The notes below the pieces were generated by a model, which had not been told where the DNA came from, ran no database searches, and saw only the letters and a list, made by a program, of their open reading frames with translations. From contig CADATP010000013.1 in NCBI GenBank assembly GCA_902790935.1, positions 1-43,336 of the forward strand: a stretch of 43,336 nt of DNA, written 5' to 3'. Source of the DNA: an uncultured Lachnospiraceae bacterium (GTDB lineage: Bacteria; Bacillota; Clostridia; Lachnospirales; Lachnospiraceae). A program made the translations under genes and the position numbers. Below, in pieces: positions 15,898-31,919 of this stretch. Each line of letters begins with the position of its first letter. The first letter of the stretch is position 1.

Positions 15898-15977
15898 GCG
15901 GATGTGATGGAATTGGTAGACATGCAAGATTTAGGTTCTTGTGCGTAAGCGTGTGGGTTCGAGTCCCTTCATCCGCA
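15898..15977 (+). tRNA. tRNA-Leu (anticodon UAG)
   Basis: The cloverleaf closes with acceptor GCGGATG/CATCCGC plus discriminator A, anticodon stem CAAGA/TCTTG around loop TTTAGGT (anticodon UAG), a long class II variable arm (GCGTAAGCGTG) and T-arm GGGTTCGAGTCCC. CCA is not encoded. Its 3' 20 bases serve as the attachment core of an integrated island, so the gene is restored after insertion while its original terminator has been displaced to 24646-24677. Confidence 0.97.
15958..15977 (+). repeat. att core, left copy (tRNA-Leu 3' end)
   Basis: The 20-base sequence from TTCGAG to CCGCA, covering the T-loop to discriminator of tRNA-Leu, recurs exactly at 24615-24634 in direct orientation. Flanking bases differ on both sides, which defines the core. 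Confidence 0.92.
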
Positions 15978-16008
15978 CTTCTATTGCCCGAGAAATGGGC
16001 ATCCGAGA

Positions 16009-16026
16009 TGGTACAAATGTGGTACA
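16009..16026 (+). repeat. Integrase arm-type direct repeats, left end
   Basis: Two TGGTACA heptamers are separated by 4 bases (TGGTACA-AATG-TGGTACA), an 11-base period of about one helical turn, and begin 31 bases from the att core. The same arrangement occurs at the other end (24537-24554). Confidence 0.7.
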
Positions 16027-16057
16027 GCCCTTGCTGTTACCGCATTTGTATTTTTTT
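16012..16057 (+). terminator. Island-borne terminator behind tRNA-Leu, overlapping the int stop
   Basis: A long imperfect stem (TACAAATG-GGTA-CAG against CTG-TTACC-GCATTTGTA) is followed by seven T residues (16051-16057) on the plus strand. It replaces the tRNA terminator moved away by the insertion. Its 5' arm contains the TGGTACA repeats and its T run overlaps the integrase stop codon. Confidence 0.75.
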
Positions 16058-17300
16058 ACCCAAACATCCTGTTCCAAGTATCAGGCTCGATCTTCTTACC
16101 GAGTTTTTCCGGTCTCTTATAGTGATTCGTCGTAGCAGGATCGGCATGACCCGCTGTGTATTGAATCACATAGTCCGGCAGGTTTGAATCATACATTGCG
16201 GTAACCGCCCAGAATCTGATCTTATGAGAAGATAGATAACCTACTCCCGCCTGCTCACAGATATGTTTGAGTTTTCTGTTGACCATATTGGTCTGTAAAG
16301 GATGACCGTTTGATACAAAGACATATTCGCTAAAAGCGGTTTCCTTGCGCTGTTCCTTTAGAAAGGATATCGCAAGTTCAGACAGATTCTGATATCTGTT
16401 GCATTTCTTCTTTCTGCCTTTGGTACGGTCGACGCATTTTTCCTTGTATACGCCATCTTCCTTTATCTGGATCATTGAACGATGAATAAATACCCTTTTG
16501 TTCTCAAAATCAACATCAGACCACTTTAAAGCCTTCATTTCCCCTACTCTTACACACAGGCAGAACATCAGCCCAATACATCTGGAATAGACATCATTAC
16601 GGCTAATACAGACCTTTAAGACCTCATTCCTTTCCTCATCACTGTAAACCTTGTCCTCATTATCCGTTTCCTTACAGCTAAGGTCCAGGGTTCTGATATC
16701 ATGAGTATTGATCACTGGCAGATTCTTATCACGGGCATAATCAAAAATGTGGTTTATAAGCGTTTTGACATTATTGAGATTCTTCCGTGTAATAGTCTGA
16801 TTTGCAGTAATACCGGCGTAATAGCTCTTTATCTCCTGATAGGTAATCTTTGTAATATCCTTGTTCTCAAGTTCTGAACCGGCAAGATGTTTACGATAAT
16901 CACTCTCGTAATGTCTTTTACTTCCAACAGATCTGTGCCCCTGCTCTATCAGAATGTCGTATTCTTTAAGCCATTGAGGATACAAAGTCTTTATCGTATT
17001 CCTCCTACGAGTATTGAGTGGCGTTTTATGAAAGTAATATTCATAAAGAGCGATCAACAGCTCAAGCTTTGTCTTTTTAATAACCTGTGGGTTATGAGTC
17101 TTAAACCGTCCGTCTGCAGTCTGACATATTTTGTTTTTATGTACTCCCTTCAGTTTTTTCTCTATTTGGGTTTCTAAATCTCTACGCATATCGTTCACTG
17201 CGTGGCTATTTAGATAGATTTTATCATATCCGAGAGCACTTTGGTATCTGAGTATTAAATTGTCAATATCTCCGCAGTAAAGTCCCTCGGATTCATTCAT
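16056..17300 (-). CDS. int: Tyrosine recombinase (phage-type integrase)
   Basis: The 414-residue protein has an N-terminal arm-binding region, a SAM-like core-binding domain (about residues 110-200) and a C-terminal catalytic domain. Catalytic residues visible are Arg in CVRVGEMKALKW near 249, His and Arg in SHKIRFW near 358-361, His in GHADPATTNHY near 384 and the nucleophile Tyr near 393. A GGAGG nine bases before the ATG at 17300 decides the start; the in-frame ATG at 17309 touches the same Shine-Dalgarno and would be too close. The stop lies about 80 bases from the att core. The 158-frame neighbour ends 21 bases upstream, so the two are probably co-transcribed. Confidence 0.95.
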   Translation of the reverse strand: MNESEGLYCGDIDNLILRYQSALGYDKIYLNSHAVNDMRRDLETQIEKKLKGVHKNKICQTADGRFKTHNPQVIKKTKLELLIALYEYYFHKTPLNTRRRNTIKTLYPQWLKEYDILIEQGHRSVGSKRHYESDYRKHLAGSELENKDITKITYQEIKSYYAGITANQTITRKNLNNVKTLINHIFDYARDKNLPVINTHDIRTLDLSCKETDNEDKVYSDEERNEVLKVCISRNDVYSRCIGLMFCLCVRVGEMKALKWSDVDFENKRVFIHRSMIQIKEDGVYKEKCVDRTKGRKKKCNRYQNLSELAISFLKEQRKETAFSEYVFVSNGHPLQTNMVNRKLKHICEQAGVGYLSSHKIRFWAVTAMYDSNLPDYVIQYTAGHADPATTNHYKRPEKLGKKIEPDTWNRMFG

Positions 17301-17321
17301 AGCGCTCATCCTCCGGATAGT

Positions 17322-17762
17322 TTACTGTGATATTACATCAGAGGAACTGTCGATATCCCCATAGGTATCCCGATATTTGCCGATTAGCTTCTCCAGGTTC
17401 CAGATTTTACTTCGAAGCTGGCGTATGCATTCCTCCAATTCCGCATTTTCTTTTTTGATTCTTTTTACCTGCGATTCATGATCAAGCAGAAAGTCTATGT
17501 TTTCATAGAATTGATCAACAAGATCCTTGTCGAGCCGGAGCTGGTTTTTCTCTTCATCATAATTAAATAATCCCTTATTGGATCCAGTAAGATCCTTAAC
17601 CATTGCTCTTGCCGTTGATTCAGGCTTCCTCGCATAATCCATGATCATATCTTTTAATTGCTTAGGTGACATTGGACCATCCAATGCGAAAAAATAGGCA
17701 TCCAAGTGGGTTGCCAGGTGTCTGAAAATCTTTACATAATCGCTGTCTTTATAATCCTCCAT
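17322..17762 (-). CDS. Small helical/coiled-coil protein upstream of integrase, possible regulator
   Basis: The 146-residue protein is not recognised. The first ~85 residues look like a helical DNA-binding domain (SPKQLKDMIMDYARKPESTARAMVKDLTG), followed by a strong heptad-like segment from about 95 to 135 (HESQVKRIKKENAELEECIR, then LRSKIWNLEKLI). AAAGGAG six bases before the ATG at 17762 decides the start; a longer frame from 17798 has no proper site. Its place directly before int, with an inverted repeat at its 5' end, fits an excision or integration control factor, but that is inference from position only. Confidence 0.7.
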   Translation of the reverse strand: MEDYKDSDYVKIFRHLATHLDAYFFALDGPMSPKQLKDMIMDYARKPESTARAMVKDLTGSNKGLFNYDEEKNQLRLDKDLVDQFYENIDFLLDHESQVKRIKKENAELEECIRQLRSKIWNLEKLIGKYRDTYGDIDSSSDVISQ

Positions 17763-17799
17763 TTTAGGCTCCTTTCCGATTGGCTTTTTGCCTTTCATC

Positions 17800-17818
17800 C
17801 CTTATGTGGGACATAAGG
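17800..17818. promoter_or_regulatory. Inverted repeat upstream of the int-proximal operon
   Basis: Perfect 8-bp arms CCTTATGT and ACATAAGG surround GGG, 38 bases upstream of the 17762 start. This may be an operator or an mRNA hairpin. A second near-palindrome, CGCAGATAATCTGCG, lies near 17863-17877. Confidence 0.5.
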
Positions 17819-18252
17819 AGTTCTAATCCGTGAAAGGATCGTAATTTTTTTATATTTTTTTCCGCAGATAATCTGCGATGCTTTCCGCTCCCAACTCTAA
17901 GTTGCAGAAAATATGCGCTACTTATTCGTTATCTGTAATATGCGGGAATTCCTTTATTTATCAGCTTTCCAAACAAATTAAAGAGGCCGCACAAAAGCTG
18001 CGCAGCCTCGGAAATGCCCTGTTTTTTCATTTGTATTTTCACTTTATATAGATTCCGACTTATCGGAATACCTGCACTGCTACAAGATTCTTTATTGCAG
18101 AAAATGTACGCCTAATTCCGCAGTAGCAATAAATCCCGGCAAAAAAGGATAACAGGATACGCCAAAAGTTGCAGTTGCAACTTTTTCGCAGAAAAACTGC
18201 ACGGCCACGCCATTTAGAATAGGGCGTTCCCTATGACCCAACGAAAACTATG
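17819..18252. other. Intergenic region with several palindromes, no gene seen
   Basis: No convincing ORF is present. It holds CGCAGATAATCTGCG (about 17863); a stem GAGGC/GCCTC at 17983-18009 that could end transcription of the 137-residue gene on the minus strand, with a weak T tract; a 10-bp-arm palindrome AAAAGTTGCA-GT-TGCAACTTTT at 18164-18185; and ATAGGG-cgtt-CCCTAT at 18219-18234. The mix of regularly spaced palindromes suggests regulator or recombinase binding. It contains no recognisable origin. Confidence 0.5.
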
Positions 18253-18666
18253 TCAGCCTACATCGTTGATGTTTTCTCTCAGTATTTCTAATTGCTCCTG
18301 GTGTTGTAATTCTGTTATTGTTCCTTTCTTAACAGCATATAGTAAGCATTTTTCAACTATAAACATAAGCTTATCGCCCGGCTTAGAATCATCCAGCATT
18401 CCACGATAAATATGTAATTGTCCAGAAGAAAGCACATCAAAAGCCACATTGTAAACAGCTGTATGTGCTATTCTATCTATATCTGTCTCATCAGTCCATC
18501 TTTCGATTTGATCTTTTGATTTTGATATCACCATATCCAATGGACCTTTTATATATGGCATGCATGGTGGAGTAGAAAACTTTTCATCCGCTTCATTAAC
18601 GATTTCATCCACATATTGCATAAAAGTGCTCAGATTCTTTTTATAGTTTTTCCTTCTAAAAAACAT
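18253..18666 (-). CDS. Hypothetical 137-residue protein in the island
   Basis: This protein is not recognised. It begins MFFRRKNYKK, a basic N-terminus similar in style to the MWFFKKKKK start of the HTH-like protein at 23924. It then has mixed helical segments with no membrane span or signal peptide. CMPYIKGPLDMVISKSKD and DRIAHTAVYNVAFDVLSSGQ look like the core of a compact alpha-helical domain. GGGAGAGG four bases before the ATG supports the start. An extended -10 box (TGATATAAT, hexamer at 18742-18737) lies about 70 bases upstream, so it seems to have its own promoter. Confidence 0.7.
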   Translation of the reverse strand: MFFRRKNYKKNLSTFMQYVDEIVNEADEKFSTPPCMPYIKGPLDMVISKSKDQIERWTDETDIDRIAHTAVYNVAFDVLSSGQLHIYRGMLDDSKPGDKLMFIVEKCLLYAVKKGTITELQHQEQLEILRENINDVG

Positions 18667-19249
18667 AATACCTCTCCCTAATAATTTTAGACAATAATCT
18701 TGTTTCTTTCTAAATAGTTGCTTAATCCCACAAACAATTATATCACTTTATATGCAAAGCTTGGCTTTTTATATGACTTTATCAAGAAAATCACCATACA
18801 GATTTCTTTTTCAAAGATTATTTGCTAGCAAATCACCGTTTTCAACTGTACTCATCTCATTCATCATCATGAATCAAAAAGGAAAATCCACACGCAATAT
18901 TGCATATAGATCCTCCTTACCTATATCGCGGAGATGGAGTTTGGAGATAAATTTCACGTTCGCATCTCTAATAGGCTTTCAACCTACATCACAGAAATGG
19001 AGTCCGGACATGTGTCCTCGATCGCATTCCTAGTAGTTTTCTACATTAAGAATATTATTCCCTAATACCCAAGTCAACTATTTGTATGTCTCTTTATAAA
19101 AGACACATTATCCTTTATAAGACCTTGTATTGTCTAGCAAGGTATATTAAATTGCTCTTAAGAGATGCATTTCCCCCGGGACCACTTATCTCCATGAGAT
19201 AAACCCCGCTCTTTGAAAAGGGAAAAGCATCTTTTTATCGTAGGATTTT
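18667..19249. other. Island non-coding region with direct and inverted repeats
   Basis: No credible protein-coding gene is seen. The minus strand carries an extended -10 promoter for the 18253-18666 gene (18737-18742). Other contents are an ATTTGCTAGCAAAT palindrome (about 18820) and a hairpin ATATAG/CTATAT with AAGGAGG in its minus-strand loop (18904-18926), followed on that strand by a 12-codon frame. There are also two 21-bp direct repeats with 17 of 21 positions identical (18920-18940 and 18983-19003, beginning CCTA and ending ATGGAGT). A structured plus-strand hairpin ends the region at 19236. Confidence 0.55.
19163..19236 (+). ncRNA. Structured RNA hairpin with terminator tail (candidate)
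   Basis: Nested helices on the plus strand are AGATGC/GCATCT, TTCCC/GGGAA, CGGG/CCCG and the tip TTATCTC-cat-GAGATAA, followed by five T residues (19232-19236). It ends 14 bases before the convergent WG-gene stop. It could be the 3' end of a plus-strand RNA from the 18.7-19.2 kb gap, or a terminator between converging units. No promoter is clear. Confidence 0.45.
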
Positions 19250-22200
19250 TTACTTCTTCTTGATATACTTAACAGCCTTACACCCAAAATCATTTGAGAG
19301 AACAAAAGTGTTATTATTTACGTATATTATGTCACTGTACTCTACTGGTAATAGTTCCTTCCCATTAACTGTTATAAGGCCTTTCACCGTGTCATCACCT
19401 TTTCTCATTTTAACAATAAGAAGTCCGTTATCGCATACTCGTATATCATCATATAAGGGTTCTAACACTAGCGTTTCATCAAAGTCGCAGAGACCAAGTT
19501 TACCATATTTTTTGAATATATACTTTCTCTTATCGAACAGTTCTCTACCTCCTCTAATAACATCGTACTTAAAAGGAACTATTACATTTCCATCTTTATC
19601 AAGTAGACCTTCTTTGGTTTTCTCTTCGATTTCCTTTTGGGCATATATATATGGGTAAGATGAGAAACAACCTATGTATTTATACTCCGAGCAAAATACT
19701 TCATTACCATCTACATCAAGAATCTTGGCTATCGTCTTTCCGCTTTCCTCATCGTATGTAACAACTTTTAATCTGCCGTCCTCGATAAAATCTATCTCTG
19801 AATATTGGGGCTCAATTACGATTCTTTTTTGTTTAGTATCATATACCCCCTCCAAAGGATCCTCAAATCCTACGGACGATTCGAATATAAACCTCCCATT
19901 AGCAAATTCGTATCCTATATATTCAAAAATCGGATCTGCTAACCAATTACCTTTACCATCAATTATCCCCCAGTGACCGTTTTCCCCTCCTCCATAATGG
20001 ACCTTAAATACCGTTTCGTCCTCTTTATTAGAATTCATACTGTTAATTTCATCGAAAATGAATGGAATAACCGCTTCCCCGGCTTTATTAATTCCACCCC
20101 AAAGCATTTCCTCTGACCAATACTTACCTTTACGAGAATCCGTGTCCCATTTGGGCTCTTTTGTCCATTCTCCCTTGCAGGCAATAGCTATTCCTTTTTC
20201 GAAGCGATATGCGAAAATATACTGAGGTTTTATCACCTCTTCACCGAATTCGTTTATGAATCCCCACAATCCTGCAGCGCTCGCATCATCAGAATAATAG
20301 GCCAAATCGTCTAAATCAAGTTTCATTGTGGAAACAGCACACATTCCTTCTGCGAAAAAACCAACATCTTCGTATGGCTTTCCGTCTTTTCCTGTAACAG
20401 TTATTTCGTTACCCTTGGTATCAATGAATAAACATTTGTCCTTATCGTGTATGTCATATACTTCAGCATGTCCGCCATCAAACCCATGCGCACTGCAATA
20501 CTTAGGCGGTGTCACAAATTCTCCATTTGTATTTACAAAACCGTATCCTTTGTTTGCTATTCCTACCCGAAACATTCCTTCAAATGCATCTTCAAGACGA
20601 GCAAAATCTATAGTTGTCAACCTATCTCCGGCTGTCGTAATAAGCGTGGTCCTATGCTTACTATACAAATCTTTGTTATCAAAAACTGCTAAGAGTCCTT
20701 CTTCTGCATCCCAGACATCCTTACCACTCCAGTTCCAGAGAGCTTTAAGTTCTTCCTCATCATCTTCATAAATTGTATAACTGCATTTTTTAGGTTCTGT
20801 ATATTTTTCTCCAAGTTTAAAACACTTCCATGTAGAAATACATAAACCATTACTAAATCTTATAGCTGGACCTCCGTCAGGATATTCTCCATATGTAGAC
20901 TTATGTGAATCAACTAATTCCGCCGATTTCCAAATAGCATCAGATAGCTTTACATCCCTATATATGACTTCTTCTTTCTTTTCATCTTCATCTTTTATAG
21001 GCAAGACATATTTTCTTGTTTCTCCGTTATCATAATCAACCAAAACCGCAAAACGTTCTGTTAATACAGGAGGCAAAACCTTGACTGATTTAGCAGACGC
21101 TAGATACTTAAATGTCCAGTTTGGAACATCCTCTTCGGCTTTCAGAAAATCGATTACTGTTTCGTCAAACTTATGTGCCTCTAACTCGATGATAAGATCA
21201 TCTCCATTTACAGTAAAACTGAACCATCCGTATCCATGTATATAAAAAACTTCGAAGTATACTTCGCCATCTTCGGAAAGATATCCGCAAAGCATTTTCC
21301 CATATTCTCTATAAATCTCTCGTAGCCGTGTATAAAAAGCTCTGTTTTCGAAAACTTTACCTTCTTCAAATTCTATGAATTTCGGGTTGTCGTCGGAAAC
21401 GGAACACTCGAATGCATCAACACTTTCATAATCGAAGGCGTACATAAACTCATCAAATACGTCATACATCTCTTTTCTTGGAAAATAAACAAGAACATCT
21501 TTCCCCATAATATTGTGTGGATGCCACAGCTCAATAACAGTATCACGAGAATCTTCATTAAATCCTACATAATAACGAAAGGCCTTGCCACGCATTACTC
21601 GCTCCACTTTTAAGTTTGTCACCAAAACAAACCCCCGCGAAAATCGTCTTTTCCCTAACTTTACGCAATATTCTCCTGTGACCGGTGAAACTCCTTTTAC
21701 ACTAGATGCATACATATAAACTGTATATGTAATAGAGTTTCTTACGCATTGATATCCTATAGAATCATCAAATATCTCCGATTCTTTGATCTTATAGCCT
21801 TCGTCTTCGAGCCATTGTCTGAAATACTCGTTTGCCTTTCTCCAGATATATACCTCGTCATCATCCAAATCTTCGTAATCTGGCTTCACCACCGTGATCT
21901 TATATTTCTCTTTTCTTTTTTCTTCTCTATGAGAAATCGGTCTCACTGTATATGGAGTATCCCTAGGTGAATCCTCAAAGTCATCAAAAAATATTACATC
22001 AAACCATTTTTTATTCCTTGAAAGCTGTATTTCAGACACTTTACAATCAGGTGTGAATTTAAAGAACACAACCGCAGTCGGTTTCTCCATATCATAGTGA
22101 TACATAAGTAAACCAAATTCAAATACGTTATAATCCGTGTCTCTACCTAAGTCACTCAGAGAAATGCCGTCCTTTAACACCGAAGCCAGTTCCATCATAT

Positions 22201-22411
22201 CGCATCTATACGGATACTCTTCTTCGTATATCTTAACGTTTTTTGCTACCCTATTCATGCTTTCTATTATTGATTCCGATGATCTTAGGTGTTTTTTTGC
22301 ATAATCCGAGTCATATTTACACTTGTTAAAGAGGTATTCTTCCAAAGATTTTGCATTTACCTCTCCTGAAAAAGCACTTCCAATTAATTCTATAATTTGT
22401 TTTTTATTCAT
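19250..22411 (-). CDS. Large WG-repeat protein, island cargo
   Basis: The 1053-residue acidic protein has a non-repeat N-terminal half of unknown fold. From about residue 620 to the end it has roughly eight degenerate WG/KWG repeats: GYGFVNTNGEFVTPPKY, LWGFINEFGEEVIKPQY, WGGINKAGEAVIPFIF, HWGIIDGKGNW, EGLLDKDGNVIVPFKY, KLGLCDFDETLVLEPLY and others. WG repeats form beta-propeller-like or solenoid surfaces thought to bind partners. No signal peptide, membrane span or enzyme motif is seen. GGAGGTG before the ATG at 22411 decides the start over an ATG at 22441. It follows the 134-residue HTH-like gene by 54 bases, probably in one operon. Its AT-richer codon use differs from the surrounding chromosome and fits transfer. 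Confidence 0.85.
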   Translation of the reverse strand: MNKKQIIELIGSAFSGEVNAKSLEEYLFNKCKYDSDYAKKHLRSSESIIESMNRVAKNVKIYEEEYPYRCDMMELASVLKDGISLSDLGRDTDYNVFEFGLLMYHYDMEKPTAVVFFKFTPDCKVSEIQLSRNKKWFDVIFFDDFEDSPRDTPYTVRPISHREEKRKEKYKITVVKPDYEDLDDDEVYIWRKANEYFRQWLEDEGYKIKESEIFDDSIGYQCVRNSITYTVYMYASSVKGVSPVTGEYCVKLGKRRFSRGFVLVTNLKVERVMRGKAFRYYVGFNEDSRDTVIELWHPHNIMGKDVLVYFPRKEMYDVFDEFMYAFDYESVDAFECSVSDDNPKFIEFEEGKVFENRAFYTRLREIYREYGKMLCGYLSEDGEVYFEVFYIHGYGWFSFTVNGDDLIIELEAHKFDETVIDFLKAEEDVPNWTFKYLASAKSVKVLPPVLTERFAVLVDYDNGETRKYVLPIKDEDEKKEEVIYRDVKLSDAIWKSAELVDSHKSTYGEYPDGGPAIRFSNGLCISTWKCFKLGEKYTEPKKCSYTIYEDDEEELKALWNWSGKDVWDAEEGLLAVFDNKDLYSKHRTTLITTAGDRLTTIDFARLEDAFEGMFRVGIANKGYGFVNTNGEFVTPPKYCSAHGFDGGHAEVYDIHDKDKCLFIDTKGNEITVTGKDGKPYEDVGFFAEGMCAVSTMKLDLDDLAYYSDDASAAGLWGFINEFGEEVIKPQYIFAYRFEKGIAIACKGEWTKEPKWDTDSRKGKYWSEEMLWGGINKAGEAVIPFIFDEINSMNSNKEDETVFKVHYGGGENGHWGIIDGKGNWLADPIFEYIGYEFANGRFIFESSVGFEDPLEGVYDTKQKRIVIEPQYSEIDFIEDGRLKVVTYDEESGKTIAKILDVDGNEVFCSEYKYIGCFSSYPYIYAQKEIEEKTKEGLLDKDGNVIVPFKYDVIRGGRELFDKRKYIFKKYGKLGLCDFDETLVLEPLYDDIRVCDNGLLIVKMRKGDDTVKGLITVNGKELLPVEYSDIIYVNNNTFVLSNDFGCKAVKYIKKK

Positions 22412-22465
22412 ATAGCACCTCCATGTTTCCATTAACTCCAAAAATATTAAATCTAATCGGTACTT

Positions 22466-22870
22466 TTAATATCTCAGGATCTTCTCTTTTTTTCTGAACA
22501 ACAGACAATTGACTGTATCAAAGTCATAGATTCCGTTATCGATGCAAAACCATATAACCCTATCCCAACCAATGGATAGCGATAAACTATACCCGGCACT
22601 TTTAAGAAGTTCTTCCGTCTCCTCCATGTTTAGCTCAAGCCCAAGGCAACACATGATTGCGGTCTCTTTGCTTGGCATATAGCTCACATTATTGTTTATG
22701 GTAGAAAACAGCTTCCTTCCAAGCCTAGCCTTTTTATAGAACTCTTTACCAGAAATTCCCTTTTCCGAAATAATCTTTAGCAGTAGTACAGAAAAAGTGG
22801 GTTCTGTATGCATATTCTCATCCCATAGGTCATATTCAGTTTTAATCCGATTATCTCTATCATCCAGCAT
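22466..22870 (-). CDS. Small HTH-like protein, paralogue of 23283-23924
   Basis: The 134-residue protein consists almost entirely of one domain (about residues 24-130) shared with the 213-residue protein upstream: EFYKKARLGRKLFSTINNNV, then KETAIMCCLGLELNMEETEE, AGYSLSLSIGWDRVIWFCI and a C-terminal NCLLF. Similar domains, which I recall at the C-termini of macrodomain and other stress-type proteins in Clostridia, look like XRE-type helix-turn-helix folds (KxFYKKAxxxRKLFSxI as the HTH). DNA or RNA binding is plausible and unproven. It is the first gene of a unit with the WG-repeat protein, and a structured repeat element lies 40 bases upstream. Confidence 0.7.
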   Translation of the reverse strand: MLDDRDNRIKTEYDLWDENMHTEPTFSVLLLKIISEKGISGKEFYKKARLGRKLFSTINNNVSYMPSKETAIMCCLGLELNMEETEELLKSAGYSLSLSIGWDRVIWFCIDNGIYDFDTVNCLLFRKKEKILRY

Positions 22871-22909
22871 ATATTCTGCCTTTTTAACTAATGTCTATAC
22901 TAAAAGGGA

Positions 22910-23038
22910 GTGGATACAGCTGAGAGTTTTCGCTCTGCCGCAGCTCATTCACACTCCCCAAGAACCCTACTCCGACGTCAGCTGCATTCAACCACTGGCA
23001 CAGACGCCCTAAGCGATACGGAAAACAGTTCTTATAAT
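22910..23038. ncRNA. Structured repeat element E, copy 1
   Basis: This 129-base element recurs as an imperfect copy at 24321-24450. Conserved blocks are GTGGATAC, CATTCACAC, ACCCTACTCCG, CTGCAT, ACGCCCTAAGCGA, ACGGAAAACA and TATAAT. Helices here are AGCTG/CAGCT, GAG/CTC, AAGAAC/GTTCTT and GTCAG/CTGGC. In the other copy the paired bases change together, which is the signature of a conserved RNA fold. The strand is uncertain, as wobble pairs do not settle it; neighbouring genes read from the minus strand. It lies just upstream of the 134-residue HTH-like gene. Confidence 0.6.
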
Positions 23039-23083
23039 ATAAATATCATGTTGAAAAAAGATAATGGTCGTTTCAGAAAGGAC

Positions 23084-23147
23084 AAAAACGGATTGCCGTT
23101 AAGCGAGGCGCCCATATATGGACGTAATCTCACCGGCAATCCGTTTT
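23084..23147 (-). terminator. Long hairpin Y, terminator-like on the minus strand
   Basis: Perfect 14-bp arms (AAAACGGATTGCCG against CGGCAATCCGTTTT) enclose a 35-base loop. On the minus strand the stem is followed by five T residues, so it can end transcription after the X element at 23155. The large, structured loop is unusual for a simple terminator. Confidence 0.6.
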
Positions 23148-23154
23148 CTATGAT

Positions 23155-23215
23155 AGCAGCCCAAATACCGCGGGGATCAAATGATCCAAACTCCGTGCGT
23201 GATGGCAACGCTGCT
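23155..23215 (-). ncRNA. Structured hairpin element X, copy A
   Basis: AGCAGC/GCTGCT outer stem, a conserved ACCGCGG strand, inner hairpin GGATC-aaat-GATCC and a CCGTGCGTGA strand. It shares outline and the CCGCGG and CCGTGCGT blocks with the elements at 24111 and 24257. It lies between the end of the 213-residue gene and hairpin Y. Confidence 0.5.
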
Positions 23216-23282
23216 AATTATCATTATACTCACTATCTAATTATCGTGGTCTTTAGGAAAAAGACATTTTCGAATTAACCCT

Positions 23283-23924
23283 TTATTTTTCACCTATGCA
23301 TTTCTCACCTGCGGCATATAATACCTGGTTAACCTGATCTATTGCGTAAATTCTGTGCTGAATGCAGTACTTGATCACCATATCCCATTTGATTGAATCA
23401 GAGAGGGCATATCCTGCAGTTTCCAGAAGATCCCTGGTATCTGTCATATTAAGCTGCAAACCTAGGCAACATGCAACAGCGGTTTCTTTTTTAGGTTTAT
23501 AATATACGTTACTGTTGATAGCAGAGAAAAGCTTTCTGTCAATCCATGCAGCTTTATAAAATTCTACATTAGACATATTCTTGTCTTCCAAACATCGCAA
23601 TAGCATTTCCTGAAATGTATAACTCCGTCTTTCAAATGCATCAACCGGAACTTCTATACAGAACTTCTTTCCTGATGATACTGCCTGTTCATCTTCTTCA
23701 GATCGTCTATTTTCTTCTGCAATAGCGTTTAGTATTTCACTAATCTTCTCTTCCGAAAGAGGCACCTCGGATTTTGAAGGAGTCAGTCTTTCATTTGAAT
23801 TCGAAAACGGTAGTTCCATCATATACATCCTACGTCTACTAGTCTTACCCAGTAAAAAATCCATATAAAGATCTTCTTCATTGAATGTTACCTCAGGTTT
23901 CTTTTTCTTCTTAAAAAACCACAT
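23283..23924 (-). CDS. HTH-like protein with basic/acidic N-terminal extension
   Basis: The 213-residue protein has a lysine-rich start (MWFFKKKKKPEV) and a low-complexity acidic middle (SEEKISEILNAIAEENRRSE). Its C-terminal domain of about 105 residues is homologous to the 134-residue protein at 22466: EFYKAAWIDRKLFSAINSNV, KETAVACCLGLQLNM, AGYALSDSIKWDMVIKYCI. GGAAGGAG before the ATG gives a good start, and an extended -10 box (TGCTATAAT, hexamer at 23981-23976) lies about 50 bases upstream. So it has its own promoter, downstream of the Y' hairpin. Function is unknown; a regulator or sensor module is the best guess. Confidence 0.7.
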   Translation of the reverse strand: MWFFKKKKKPEVTFNEEDLYMDFLLGKTSRRRMYMMELPFSNSNERLTPSKSEVPLSEEKISEILNAIAEENRRSEEDEQAVSSGKKFCIEVPVDAFERRSYTFQEMLLRCLEDKNMSNVEFYKAAWIDRKLFSAINSNVYYKPKKETAVACCLGLQLNMTDTRDLLETAGYALSDSIKWDMVIKYCIQHRIYAIDQVNQVLYAAGEKCIGEK

Positions 23925-24029
23925 GGATTTAGTCTCCTTCCACTTTTTTTACTTGATTGAAATACCTATAAACAAATTATAGCACAGCAATTTTCTCGTT
24001 TGTTCAACTGTAAATAAATATTATAAAAA

Positions 24030-24084
24030 TACCGATTAACAAGTGTACTAGGCTCCAATTGCCGTTCATACTTGTTAATCGGTA
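24030..24084 (-). terminator. Long hairpin Y', terminator-like on the minus strand
   Basis: Perfect 15-bp arms TACCGATTAACAAGT and ACTTGTTAATCGGTA enclose a 25-base loop with a small stem GGC-tccaatt-GCC. On the minus strand the stem runs into TATTTTTATAA. The loop 14-mer AGGCTCCAATTGCC recurs at 24212-24225, where the surrounding arms are lost. Confidence 0.65.
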
Positions 24085-24110
24085 CTTTGATTTTGCGTCT
24101 TAACAGCAAA

Positions 24111-24171
24111 AAAGCAGATCGAATTCCGCGGAGAGCATTTGCTCATCTACCGTGCGTAACGACTCTGCTTT
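24111..24171 (-). ncRNA. Structured hairpin element X, copy B
   Basis: Outer stem AAAGCAGA/TCTGCTTT extends with TCG/CGA, followed by CCGCGG, inner hairpin GAGC-attt-GCTC and CCGTGCGTAA. On the minus strand it is followed by six T residues. It is closely related to the copy at 24257. Confidence 0.55.
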
Positions 24172-24256
24172 CTTGCTAAATTATTATGATGAAAACAGCG
24201 CTACAATCGTCAGGCTCCAATTGCCTTAGATGGTTCAGACACTTCATTTTCACCAA

Positions 24257-24311
24257 AAGCAGGTCAAACCGCGGAGAGCATACGCTCACCTACATGCCGT
24301 CGATTCTGCTT
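24257..24311 (-). ncRNA. Structured hairpin element X, copy C
   Basis: Outer stem AAGCAG/CTGCTT, ACCGCGGA, inner hairpin GAGC-atac-GCTC and a CCTACATGCCGT strand. It shares CCGCGGAGAGCAT and CTCA-CTAC with copy B. It lies between element E' and the 14-mer repeat at 24212. Confidence 0.5.
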
Positions 24312-24320
24312 ATAAACGAT

Positions 24321-24450
24321 GTGGATACGGCAGAGGATATTAAAATCCTGGCACTGCCCATTCACACATCATAGGGACCCTACTCCGGCGCCAACTGCAT
24401 CAGCCATTGACACACACGCCCTAAGCGACACGGAAAACAATCCCTATAAT
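24321..24450. ncRNA. Structured repeat element E', copy 2
   Basis: This 130-base counterpart of 22910-23038 starts GTGGATAC and ends CCCTATAAT. Helices are GGCAG/CTGCC, GGAT/ATCC, ATAGGGA/TCCCTAT and CCAA/TTG(A). These differ in sequence from copy 1 but keep pairing in the same places. It is the cargo element nearest the right att site, about 165 bases from the core. Confidence 0.6.
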
Positions 24451-24536
24451 CAGCATAGCATTTATTCCGTAAAAAGCAAGTATGTATCTGTCCCTTCTGA
24501 AATGACAACTATTCAATTCTCTCATTCTATTATAGC

Positions 24537-24554
24537 TGGTACAGAAGTGGTACA
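24537..24554 (+). repeat. Integrase arm-type direct repeats, right end
   Basis: TGGTACA-GAAG-TGGTACA has the same heptamers and 4-base spacing as the left-end copy at 16009-16026, in the same orientation. It ends 60 bases before the right att core. Confidence 0.7.
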
Positions 24555-24614
24555 AAGGGAATCAATAGCCACGCAAACTCCTTTCTTACTGGGTTTTCCG
24601 TATTATCTCGATTA

Positions 24615-24634
24615 TTCGAGTCCCTTCATCCGCA
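24615..24634 (+). repeat. att core, right copy
   Basis: Exact 20-base duplicate of the tRNA-Leu 3' end (15958-15977) in direct orientation. It marks the distal junction of the island. A partial third match, CCCTTCATCCGC, lies at 24798-24809. Confidence 0.92.
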
Positions 24635-24645
24635 TATATACGAAG

Positions 24646-24677
24646 CAGCCCTGCTCAATTAAGAGCAGGGCTGTTTT
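24646..24677 (+). terminator. Original tRNA-Leu terminator, displaced by the island
   Basis: Perfect 11-bp arms CAGCCCTGCTC and GAGCAGGGCTG with a 6-base loop are followed by TTTT. Outer bases ATATACGAA/TTCGTATAT extend the pairing. It starts 11 bases after the right att core, which is where the tRNA terminator would lie before insertion. Confidence 0.88.
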
Positions 24678-24684
24678 CGTATAT

Positions 24685-24872
24685 GCGCCGAGGGAGCCCT
24701 CGAACCCACGGGTTCTCTGTCTCCTCGGCGCAGAGCGCCTTCGTCGGTCCGTTCGGCGGAAAAATGGTCCACCGGACCATTTTCTATTTCCGCCTCACCC
24801 TTCATCCGCTTTCTTCCCCCTGCGGATGCCCCAAACCCACGGTTCTTAAGTCTCGCAGGCGTAAACGCCTGC
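24685..24872. repeat. Chain of palindromes with tRNA 3'-end-like segments
   Basis: Successive perfect stems are GCGCCGAGG/CCTCGGCGC (24685-24731, enclosing GAACCC/GGGTTC), AAAATGGTCC/GGACCATTTT inside GGCGGAAA/TTTCCGCC (24755-24794), CATCCGC/GCGGATG (24803-24828) and GCAGGCGT/ACGCCTGC (24855-24872). Minus-strand stretches GTGGGTTCGAGGG and GTGGGTTTGGGGCATCCGCA resemble tRNA T-arm and acceptor ends. A 73-codon minus-strand frame through it is most likely spurious. It looks like a dispersed palindromic repeat composite, and I recall similar sequence near tRNA genes in Lachnospiraceae, unchecked. Confidence 0.6.
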
Positions 24873-24893
24873 TCGGTCAAATTTTGTAAATCT

Positions 24894-25175
24894 GTGCCTA
24901 AGATACGCCATGGATTGCTTCTTAGGCACTCTTATTTGTTCATACTTACCCTTATTTTCTCTTGTTTCCACTCAATTTGTGCCTAACCTCCTCTACATTT
25001 CCATTCTTAGGCACAAAAAACGCTTCAAGATAATAAATAAATATGAACGATTCTGGAAAATCTAAAAGATTTCTGTGCCTAAAACCCGCCTCGGCCCCCT
25101 CCTTAGGCACAAAACCTGCAAAATATCAAAAAGCTTCTGTGCCTAAAACCCGCCTCGGCCCCCTCCTTAGGCACA
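24894..25175. repeat. Four GTGCCTAA/TTAGGCAC inverted-repeat units
   Basis: Units at 24894-24929 (9-bp arms), 24976-25017 (11-bp arms), 25074-25111 and 25138-25175 (9-bp arms) each have TGTGCCTAA on the left and TTAGGCACA on the right, with a 16-21-base centre. The first two centres differ completely while the arms stay fixed; the last two units are identical. No ORF crosses the block. Confidence 0.8.
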
Positions 25176-30389: not shown

Positions 30390-31919
30390 ATGGCACAGAT
30401 ACAAGTTAATGATCTAACCTTTGGTTACGAAGGAAGTTTTGATAATGTTTTCAATGGGATAAGTTTTAAGATCGATACGGACTGGAAGCTGGGGCTTATC
30501 GGCAGGAACGGGAAGGGAAAGACCACCCTGCTGAATCTTTTTATGGGAAAATACGAGTATAAAGGAAGTATTGTAAGCAGCACCCGTTTTGACTATTTTC
30601 CATACTCCGTCTCGGAATCTGATAATGAGAAAACCGCTTCCGAGCTGATGGAAAAGTGGAAGCCGGATATAGAAAGCTGGCAGGTTCTGATCCAGATGGA
30701 TCTGCTTAAGATGGATCCCGAATGTCTCTACAGGCCCTTTAAGACCTTGAGCTTTGGCGAGCGGACAAGAGTAATGCTTGCAGTACTCTTCGCTTCTGAA
30801 AATGAGTTTCTATTAATAGACGAACCGACCAATCATTTGGACACTGCGGCACGGGATATTGTTAAAAAATATCTGGCATCTAAAAAGGGATTCATACTGG
30901 TTTCCCATGACAGAGATCTGCTGGACGGCGTATGCGATCATATCCTGGCCTTTAATCGTGAAACTATCGAAGTACAAAGCGGAAACTTCTCTTCCTGGTG
31001 GGAGAACAAAGAAAAAACCGACGCCTTTAAGAAAGCCGAGAATGAAAAGCACTTAAAAGAGATCGGAAAGCTGAAAGCTGCGGCAGATAGAGCGGAAAGA
31101 TGGGCAGAGAAAAATGAAAATACAAAGATCGGCTTCGACCCTATAAAGGAACACGACAGATGCCTCTCCACCCGCTCATTTATAGGCGCCAAAACTAAAA
31201 AAATGCAGTCCAGGGTGAAATCCTTTGAGACTCGTATAGACCGCGAGATAGAGGAAAAGACCGGGCTTTTGCAGGATATAGAAAGAGTCAGAGATCTAAA
31301 GCTCACCCCACTTGAGCATCATAAGGAAGTTCTGATAAATGCGGCAAACTTTTCTCTAAAGTACGCAGATTCCGAACAAAACCTGTTTGATGGCTTGAGA
31401 TTTCAGGTAAAGCGTGGTGACCGCGTCGTCATATCCGGTGAAAACGGCTACGGGAAATCAAGCTTAATAAAGCTTATCCTGGAAAAAGCCGGGTATGAGT
31501 ACGCGGAAAAGAAAAGCTCAGGGCTGCTATACTCCGGTACCTTTGATGTTGCCTCAGGTATGATAATATCCTATATAAGTCAGGATACTTCTTCTCTGTC
31601 GGGATCACTCACGGATTTTTGTAAAGAAAGAAATATTGACAGGAGTCTGTTTTTAACGGTTTTAAGACAGCTCGATTTTAGCCGCGAACAGTTCGCGAAG
31701 GATATGAAAGATTTTTCCGAAGGCCAGAAAAAGAAGGTTCTTATATCCGCGAGTCTGATCACTCCGGCTCATTTATATATCTGGGATGAACCCTTAAACT
31801 ACATCGATGTGTTTTCAAGAATGCAGATAGAAAACATCATCCTTAAATACGAACCCACCATGCTTTTAGTCGAGCACGACATCAGGTTCCGGGAAAGGGT
31901 CGCCACTGAAGTGGTTTAG
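30390..31919 (+). CDS. ABC-F ribosomal protection protein, Lsa-like
   Basis: The 509-residue protein has two ATPase domains and no membrane segment. Domain 1 has Walker A GRNGKGKTT near residue 38, signature LSFGERTRV near 119 and Walker B LLIDEPTNHLD near 141. Domain 2 has GENGYGKSS near 350, FSEGQKKKV near 444 and IWDEPLNYIDVFSRMQIE near 464. The interdomain linker (about 200-300) is long and charged, as in antibiotic-resistance ABC-Fs. The opening MAQIQVNDLTFGYEGSFDNVF matches the Lsa/Vga-type pattern. Such proteins displace lincosamides, pleuromutilins and streptogramin A from the ribosome. CAGGAGG before the ATG fixes the start, and the attenuator leader supports drug induction. Confidence 0.9.
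   Translation: MAQIQVNDLTFGYEGSFDNVFNGISFKIDTDWKLGLIGRNGKGKTTLLNLFMGKYEYKGSIVSSTRFDYFPYSVSESDNEKTASELMEKWKPDIESWQVLIQMDLLKMDPECLYRPFKTLSFGERTRVMLAVLFASENEFLLIDEPTNHLDTAARDIVKKYLASKKGFILVSHDRDLLDGVCDHILAFNRETIEVQSGNFSSWWENKEKTDAFKKAENEKHLKEIGKLKAAADRAERWAEKNENTKIGFDPIKEHDRCLSTRSFIGAKTKKMQSRVKSFETRIDREIEEKTGLLQDIERVRDLKLTPLEHHKEVLINAANFSLKYADSEQNLFDGLRFQVKRGDRVVISGENGYGKSSLIKLILEKAGYEYAEKKSSGLLYSGTFDVASGMIISYISQDTSSLSGSLTDFCKERNIDRSLFLTVLRQLDFSREQFAKDMKDFSEGQKKKVLISASLITPAHLYIWDEPLNYIDVFSRMQIENIILKYEPTMLLVEHDIRFRERVATEVV

What the first reader, a model, noticed from the sequence alone, without database searches (positions are those of the whole stretch)
22910..24450. Two copies of a ~130-nt element with compensatory base changes: candidate new structured RNA family
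Elements at 22910-23038 and 24321-24450 share long identical blocks (ACCCTACTCCG, ACGCCCTAAGCGA, ACGGAAAACA). They differ mainly where the bases pair. AGCTG/CAGCT becomes GGCAG/CTGCC, AAGAAC/GTTCTT becomes ATAGGGA/TCCCTAT, the tip GAG/CTC becomes GGAT/ATCC, and CAG/CTG becomes CAA/TTG. Several helices changing in step within one island is strong evidence of selection on RNA structure. I cannot match it to a family I know.
Basis: seen in the sequence. Interest (0 to 1): 0.88.

Follow-up and report, generated by a model that had tools for sequence, protein, structure and literature searches.

The report
Paired orphan RNAs in mobile island
Two diverged copies of a folded RNA-like element sit beside two related regulator genes in a small mobile DNA island of a bacterium; the fold is well supported, but no third copy was found and its job is untested.

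Summary
Two ~137-nt elements (22905-23039, 24316-24451) share core blocks and differ by compensated changes. None of 300 column-shuffled alignments folded as well on either strand (z about -8). Changes show no codon rhythm and Rfam has no match at its thresholds. (1) Read on the minus strand the fold is larger: 42 pairs, 83 of 84 cells paired, 10 pairs changed on both sides; the same helices as plus-strand RNA pair in 71 of 84. (2) Minus is the sense of two paralogous HTH genes; copy 1 ends 34 nt before one start codon, copy 2 391 nt before the other, so [RNA + HTH gene] looks tandem-duplicated. All lies in an 8.66-kb element in tRNA-Leu; a sister genome has the empty site. No third copy: own genome only among 397 family, 31 genus and 275 order genomes; exact core patterns in 84,980 species and in viral contigs gave only false hits. 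Best reading: a leader or small RNA tied to the HTH regulators; function is inferred.

The parts
22903..23041 (-). RNA element A, copy 1
   Evidence: Model R2 match 160.7 bits (built from it, so by construction); 42-pair fold. On the minus strand the last hairpin is followed by UUUU.
24314..24453 (-). RNA element A, copy 2
   Evidence: Model R2 match 162.7 bits (built from it, so by construction); compensated against copy 1.
22466..22870 (-). 134-aa HTH protein gene P0001; start codon 34 nt past copy 1
   Evidence: 54% identical over 108 aa to P0002; Pfam HTH_19 E 0.01, below its cut-off; AlphaFold2 mean pLDDT 88.6, all-helical; Foldseek top rows are XRE-type controllers, weak, best E 0.05.
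23283..23924 (-). 213-aa HTH protein gene P0002; start codon 391 nt past copy 2
   Evidence: Paralogue of P0001; C-terminal domain widespread in relatives.
15978..24634 (.). 8.66-kb integrated element that holds both copies
   Evidence: 20-nt direct repeats 15958-15977 and 24615-24634; sister genome G404 has tRNA-Leu joined straight to the same downstream terminator.
16056..17309 (-). tyrosine recombinase (integrase)
   Evidence: Pfam Phage_integrase 6.7e-24; PHROG integrase 2e-37.
16010..16026 (+). GGTACAAATGTGGTACA, probable integrase site, left end
   Evidence: Pattern match, mean 0.00 in shuffles; role inferred.
24538..24554 (+). GGTACAGAAGTGGTACA, probable integrase site, right end
   Evidence: Pattern match, mean 0.00 in shuffles; role inferred.
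23154..23218 (+). second hairpin element B, copy 1
   Evidence: R3 70.4 bits (model built from it).
24112..24172 (+). element B, copy 2 (on the minus strand followed by T6)
   Evidence: R3 83.5 bits (model built from it); one of two minus-strand terminator-like sites, a number not above shuffles.
24257..24313 (+). element B, copy 3
   Evidence: R3 63.8 bits (model built from it).
23085..23147 (.). strong hairpin
   Evidence: Inverted repeat 19 nt 89%; fold z -3.5 for 23076-23160 plus; the other minus-strand terminator-like site lies in its arm.
24050..24063 (+). element C, AGGCTCCAATTGCC hairpin core, copy 1
24212..24225 (+). element C, copy 2

Best explanation
Element A is a structured RNA transcribed on the minus strand, with two domains: a long closed domain (P4 enclosing P5, P6 and a small CGC/GCG hairpin) and a terminal bulged hairpin (P1-P3). 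It is the leader, or a small RNA cut from the leader, of a module made of RNA plus a short XRE-like HTH regulator gene. The module was duplicated in tandem inside a mobile element, and both halves then diverged while the RNA kept its fold. Most likely it acts in cis on the HTH gene: the terminal hairpin, followed by UUUU in copy 1 and 34 nt before the start codon, could stop transcription unless the upstream domain binds something. Shown: the fold, the compensation, a strand preference by wobble pairs, the gene order, the mobile element. Inferred: transcription, the attenuation, the link to the HTH protein.
For: Fold and compensation. Strand: of the 36 pairs drawn on plus, the 3 broken in copy 2 are U-G on minus; over the 42 pairs drawn on minus, 83 of 84 cells pair on minus and 71 of 84 on plus. 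Gene order: both copies lie upstream, in sense, of the paralogous HTH genes. Not coding: 12, 9 and 13 changes at the three codon positions over 133 columns, phase shared only from column 85 on. The terminal hairpin folds at -22.8 kcal/mol in each copy.
Against: Copy 2 is 391 nt from its gene with hairpins between, one of them terminator-like by scan, so a leader role is weaker there; copy 2 has GUUUAU, not a U run, after its hairpin. Promoter-like (5, shuffles 6.3) and terminator-like (2, shuffles 1.6) sites are not above chance. No A-like element near HTH-domain genes in 30 relatives' loci with filters off (28 genus loci plus L006, L007; best 8.7 bits, E 3.9) or in 7 more family loci with default filters. 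Single-sequence z-scores favour plus in both copies (-3.68 and -4.12 against -1.97 and -3.73) and alifold z is about equal (-8.2 and -8.0). The 42-pair fold was drawn on minus, which biases 83 against 71. No expression data.
Confidence: 0.42

Rival explanations
1. A free-standing small RNA that acts in trans, or an RNA partner of a protein of the element, placed beside the HTH genes only because the segment was duplicated whole.
For: Two closed domains like a compact free RNA; a conserved ATTATA lies at the minus-strand 5' edge in both copies, overlapping the first two bases of P4; copy 2 is far from its gene; other structured stretches lie in the element.
Against: No clear terminator after copy 2. 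In the element's proteins no RNA-binding or toxin family passes a curated cut-off in Pfam or NCBIfam (the only RNA-related name, Gar1 for P0003, is far below its cut-off at 14.9 of 106 bits), nothing below 0.001 in PADLOC, and the one sub-0.001 PHROG match of P0002 has no known function.
Confidence: 0.27
2. A DNA element: a hairpin region that works as single-stranded DNA during transfer of the mobile element, such as a single-strand origin.
For: It lies in a mobile element that also has an oriT-like stretch shared with relatives; the strands fold as DNA too (z -2.2 to -3.8). ICEBs1 has such an origin, with three stem-loops, orientation-specific (PMC4595007, passages seen).
Against: Copy 1 has no blastn match among 72,556 plasmid records at E up to 0.1, where such origins are common (recalled); no TAGCG(T/A) box (recalled as the usual conserved box) in either copy; conserved G-U pairs suit RNA better than DNA.
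Confidence: 0.15
3. A duplicated inverted-repeat-rich stretch with no present function.
For: Only two copies known; found in one genome.
Against: 10 pairs changed on both sides with one unpaired cell in 84 is hard to get without selection on pairing.
Confidence: 0.08
4. A known RNA family too diverged to score, or a decayed coding sequence.
For: Both copies lie in open plus-strand frames (122 codons at 22910-23278, 176 codons at 24319-24849), which share a 17-residue match, 11 identical, E 3e-4 for this one comparison.
Against: The two frames are in different phase up to column 84 of the alignment and in the same phase only after it; changes fall evenly on codon positions, 12, 9, 13 of 45, 44, 44, and 4, 3, 2 of 18, 17, 17 in the same-phase part. 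At E up to 10 the only Rfam match over either copy is a 15-bit lncRNA one, E 9.7.
Confidence: 0.05

Closest known systems
Orphan candidate structured RNA motifs found by comparative genomics of bacterial intergenic regions (for example PMC8040213 and PMC11109978; search listing and start of abstract seen only)
   Same: Conserved fold with compensated changes in an intergenic region, no function assigned (recalled as the usual case).
   Different: Those motifs rest on several genomes (recalled); here there are two paralogous copies in one genome.
5' leader attenuators of bacterial genes (recalled)
   Same: Folded RNA ahead of a gene, ending in a hairpin plus U run in copy 1.
   Different: No antiterminator shown; copy 2 is 391 nt away without a U run; no ligand or antitermination motif known.
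Single-strand origin of ICEBs1 (PMC4595007, passages seen)
   Same: Orientation-specific multi-hairpin region in a mobile element.
   Different: No match of copy 1 to plasmids; wobble pairs point to RNA.
Pistol ribozyme (recalled)
   Same: Likeness of a CCCUAAGCG string, probably chance.
   Different: No Rfam match; the pseudoknot partner is not evident by eye.

Membership tests
Any Rfam 15 family | Score at or above the curated gathering threshold | tested here: not met
   Only the tRNA at 15898-15977 passes in the window; over element A nothing better than 15.2 bits against a threshold of 70.
New structured RNA family | Base-paired fold kept through compensatory changes | tested here: met
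   10 of 42 pairs changed on both sides, 83 of 84 cells paired; alifold z about -8. Two sequences only.
New structured RNA family | Independent homologues beyond the founding copies | tested here: not met
   Own genome only in 397 family, 31 genus and 275 order genomes; 8 genome-contig and 7 viral-contig pattern hits have no R1 match. Filters and candidate limits could hide a diverged copy.
Cis-regulatory leader of an HTH gene | In-sense position just upstream of the gene in each case | tested here: inconclusive
   34 nt for copy 1, 391 nt for copy 2.
Cis-regulatory leader of an HTH gene | Transcribed with the gene and changes its expression | not testable with these tools
   Needs RNA-seq and reporters.
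Single-strand origin | Sequence likeness to plasmid origins or the TAGCG(T/A) box | tested here: not met
   No plasmid match of copy 1; box absent from both copies; box recalled, not from a call.
Protein-coding sequence | Kept frame with third-position changes | tested here: not met
   Changes 12, 9, 13 by position over 133 columns; phase differs before column 85; 17-residue match only.

The most novel reading that the evidence does not exclude
A mobile-element-borne module in which each short HTH protein has its own cognate structured RNA, the two pairs having diverged in step so that each protein reads only its own RNA; a new RNA class known so far from two paralogues.
Probability: 0.13. Interest if true: 0.65.

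Novelty: new member of a known kind. Interest (0 to 1): 0.42.

Why it matters
Small mobile elements may carry private structured RNAs that homology-driven surveys miss because they occur in one genome. Here a duplication inside the element supplies the covariation that is normally drawn from many species. If the RNA and the HTH genes do form pairs, it would be a simple natural test of co-divergence between an RNA and its partner gene.

Tried and rejected
Known RNA family: rejected after Rfam at gathering and at E up to 10. Plus-strand reading: kept as possible, judged less likely on wobble pairs, against the single-sequence z-scores. Fixed partner of the HTH domain: rejected, since 30 loci with the domain show no A-like element with filters off and 7 more none with default filters. 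Defence system: no PADLOC match below 0.001 for the 8 proteins scanned, 6 of them in the element (lowest 0.0026). Coding: rejected. Pistol ribozyme likeness: not pursued beyond Rfam.

Pattern hits in viral contigs (1, 6) and genome contigs (8) have no R1 match (default filters) and are not counted as homologues. One B pattern was mis-spaced; used, it could not match the window's own copies, so those two calls are not counted as negatives. A corrected one found only the own genome, 1 of 299, and a stricter one 0 viral stretches. R3 found B only where its model came from, over 58 sources. A tblastn of part of the G405 frame that holds B found nothing in phages. P0002 in viral contigs: no relative. 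The 1,841-base region in E. coli genomes: no match.

Limits: several genome searches scored only a few candidates per genome or used strict filters, so a diverged copy could be missed. The genome-contig scan was by one exact core pattern. Phages and plasmids were searched with copy 1 only.

Full report
OBSERVATION. The window holds two elements of about 137 nt, 22905-23039 and 24316-24451, in direct orientation 1.41 kb apart. The blocks ACCCTACTCCG, ACGCCCTAAGCGA and ACGGAAAACA are identical in both. 99 of 133 aligned positions agree; blastn gives 79% over 103 nt. No third match is in the held genome, which is 94 contigs at 83% completeness. The alignment has a 2-nt and a 1-nt indel, both in loops of the fold.

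FOLD. Read on the plus strand, 36 pairs can be drawn, of which 9 changed on both sides between copies and 3 are broken in copy 2. Read on the minus strand, helices grow: P4 8 pairs, P5 5, P6 8, a 3-pair CGC/GCG hairpin, then P1 9, P2 5 and P3 4; 42 pairs, 83 of 84 cells paired, 10 pairs changed on both sides and 3 on one side. Shuffling columns within gap and identity classes gave no alignment as stable in 300 trials on either strand, z -8.2 plus and -8.0 minus. Re-dealing partners reached 10 double changes in 3 of 500 shuffles and sliding partners gave 0-1; both controls are weak with two rows. Unpaired positions are not clearly more conserved than paired ones (36 of 47, gap columns counted as different, against 59 of 84, p 0.54).

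STRAND. All three pairs broken on plus in copy 2 are U-G on minus; the one pair broken on minus (C-A in copy 1) is U-G on plus. Several invariant U-G pairs extend P4, P5 and P6 only on minus. The same 42 pairs read as plus RNA give 71 of 84. That comparison leans to minus because the helices were drawn there, but the 36 pairs drawn on plus also do slightly better on minus (71 of 72 against 69 of 72, counted by hand). Against this, single-sequence z-scores favour plus in both copies (-3.68 and -4.12 against -1.97 and -3.73), and alifold z-scores are about equal. I take minus at about 0.75.

NOT CODING, NOT RFAM. Both copies lie in open plus-strand frames of 122 and 176 codons. The two frames are in different phase up to column 84 and share only a 17-residue match, 11 identical. 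Changes fall evenly on codon positions: 12, 9 and 13 of 45, 44 and 44. Rfam 15 gives only the tRNA at its thresholds, and at E up to 10 only a 15-bit lncRNA match over copy 1 and none over copy 2.

SURROUNDINGS. The nearest annotated-size genes left of and between the copies run on the minus strand. P0001 (22466-22870) and P0002 (23283-23924) share an HTH-like domain, 54% identical over 108 aa. Copy 1 lies 34 nt before the start of P0001; copy 2 lies 391 nt before the start of P0002. So the order, in sense, is A, gene, A, gene, as after a tandem duplication. AlphaFold2 makes P0001 an all-helical domain at mean pLDDT 88.6. Foldseek's best rows are XRE-type controllers, and SinR is among the rows, but at E 0.05 or worse; Pfam HTH_19 is below its cut-off, and a profile search of PDB sequences gives SinR only at E 0.36. 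The domain is common: 38 of 100 family genomes and 27 of 31 genus genomes, the own genome included in both. In relatives it is often the C-terminal part of larger proteins; of 7 plasmid records with it, 3 are annotated there as macro-domain or O-acetyl-ADP-ribose deacetylase proteins. No A-like element lies in 30 such loci (filters off) or 7 more.

MOBILE ELEMENT. tRNA-Leu (15898-15978) ends in 20 nt that recur exactly at 24615-24634. An integrase gene lies next to the tRNA. GGTACANANGTGGTACA occurs once near each end. In G404 an intact tRNA-Leu runs straight into the same downstream terminator, so the element is an insertion of about 8,657 bp. In G400 the same site seems to hold another insert.

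OTHER HAIRPINS. Three copies of a second element, B, lie between or beside the A copies. A fourth lies in G405 inside an open frame of at least 822 codons. Its hairpin carries a 3' bulge like that of A's P2-P3, by eye. Alifold z for the three own copies is -6.1 plus and -4.4 minus, so B leans to plus, unlike A. C, a 14-nt hairpin core, occurs twice. What these do is unknown.

SEARCH FOR MORE COPIES. Blastn with copy 2: own genome only, 1 of 299 family genomes. R1: own only, 1 of 397. The 1,841-base region: 10 of 31 genus genomes match somewhere, none over A but the own genome. R2: own only, 1 of 31 genus and 1 of 275 order genomes. Exact core patterns gave 0, 1, 6 and 0 viral stretches and 8 genome-contig stretches. 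Those 15 stretches carry no R1 match at E up to 10. Copy 1 in phages and plasmids: none. Two literature searches listed general surveys of structured RNAs; from titles and abstract starts none names this element, and supplements could not be read, so I do not claim that it is absent from print.

MECHANISM. Most likely a minus-strand leader or leader-derived RNA tied to the HTH regulators. Copy 1's terminal hairpin (-22.8 kcal/mol) followed by UUUU and a gene 34 nt on fits attenuation; copy 2, with an equally stable hairpin but no U run and a distant gene, fits it less well. Rivals are a trans-acting RNA, a single-stranded DNA element for transfer, and a functionless duplication. Expression is untested.

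VERDICT. A sound observation and a credible structured RNA, with strand and context corrected; not yet a family.

Noticed in passing
window 18840-19245, minus strand: A second large structured stretch (fold z -4.4) downstream of the WG-repeat gene, with two ~30-nt direct repeats 63 nt apart and a strong hairpin with U5 near its end; no Rfam match of note. Pairwise alifold of the repeats alone is weak (z -1.0 and -1.6).
   Followed up: partly
window 18141-18240: About 100 nt shared with several relatives (80% in G421, 79% in G413, 75% in G404), with a palindrome and ATCCTG on the minus strand, which recalls a relaxase nick region (recalled); possible oriT of a mobilizable element.
   Followed up: partly
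L036 1498-1558 (G405): Element B inside a long open frame of another genus member, with its outer stem changed to AACAGA/TCTGTT; may be a small mobile palindrome.
   Followed up: partly
window 24891-25174: Four spaced hairpins with arms GTGCCTAA/TTAGGCAC outside the element, terminator- or REP-like.
   Followed up: no
L034 1340-1640 (G400): The same tRNA-Leu site seems to hold a different insert in a sister genome.
   Followed up: no
window 19250-22441: 1063-aa WG-repeat protein, cargo of the element, function unknown; partial relatives in four phage records.
   Followed up: no
window 30390-31919: ABC-F protein above the general ribosomal-protection ABC-F cut-off (442 of 380 bits) and below the Lsa one (622 of 750).
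   Followed up: no
window 23033-23038 and 24445-24450: TATAAT on plus (ATTATA on minus) conserved at the same edge of both A copies; promoter part on one strand or the other, unresolved.
   Followed up: partly
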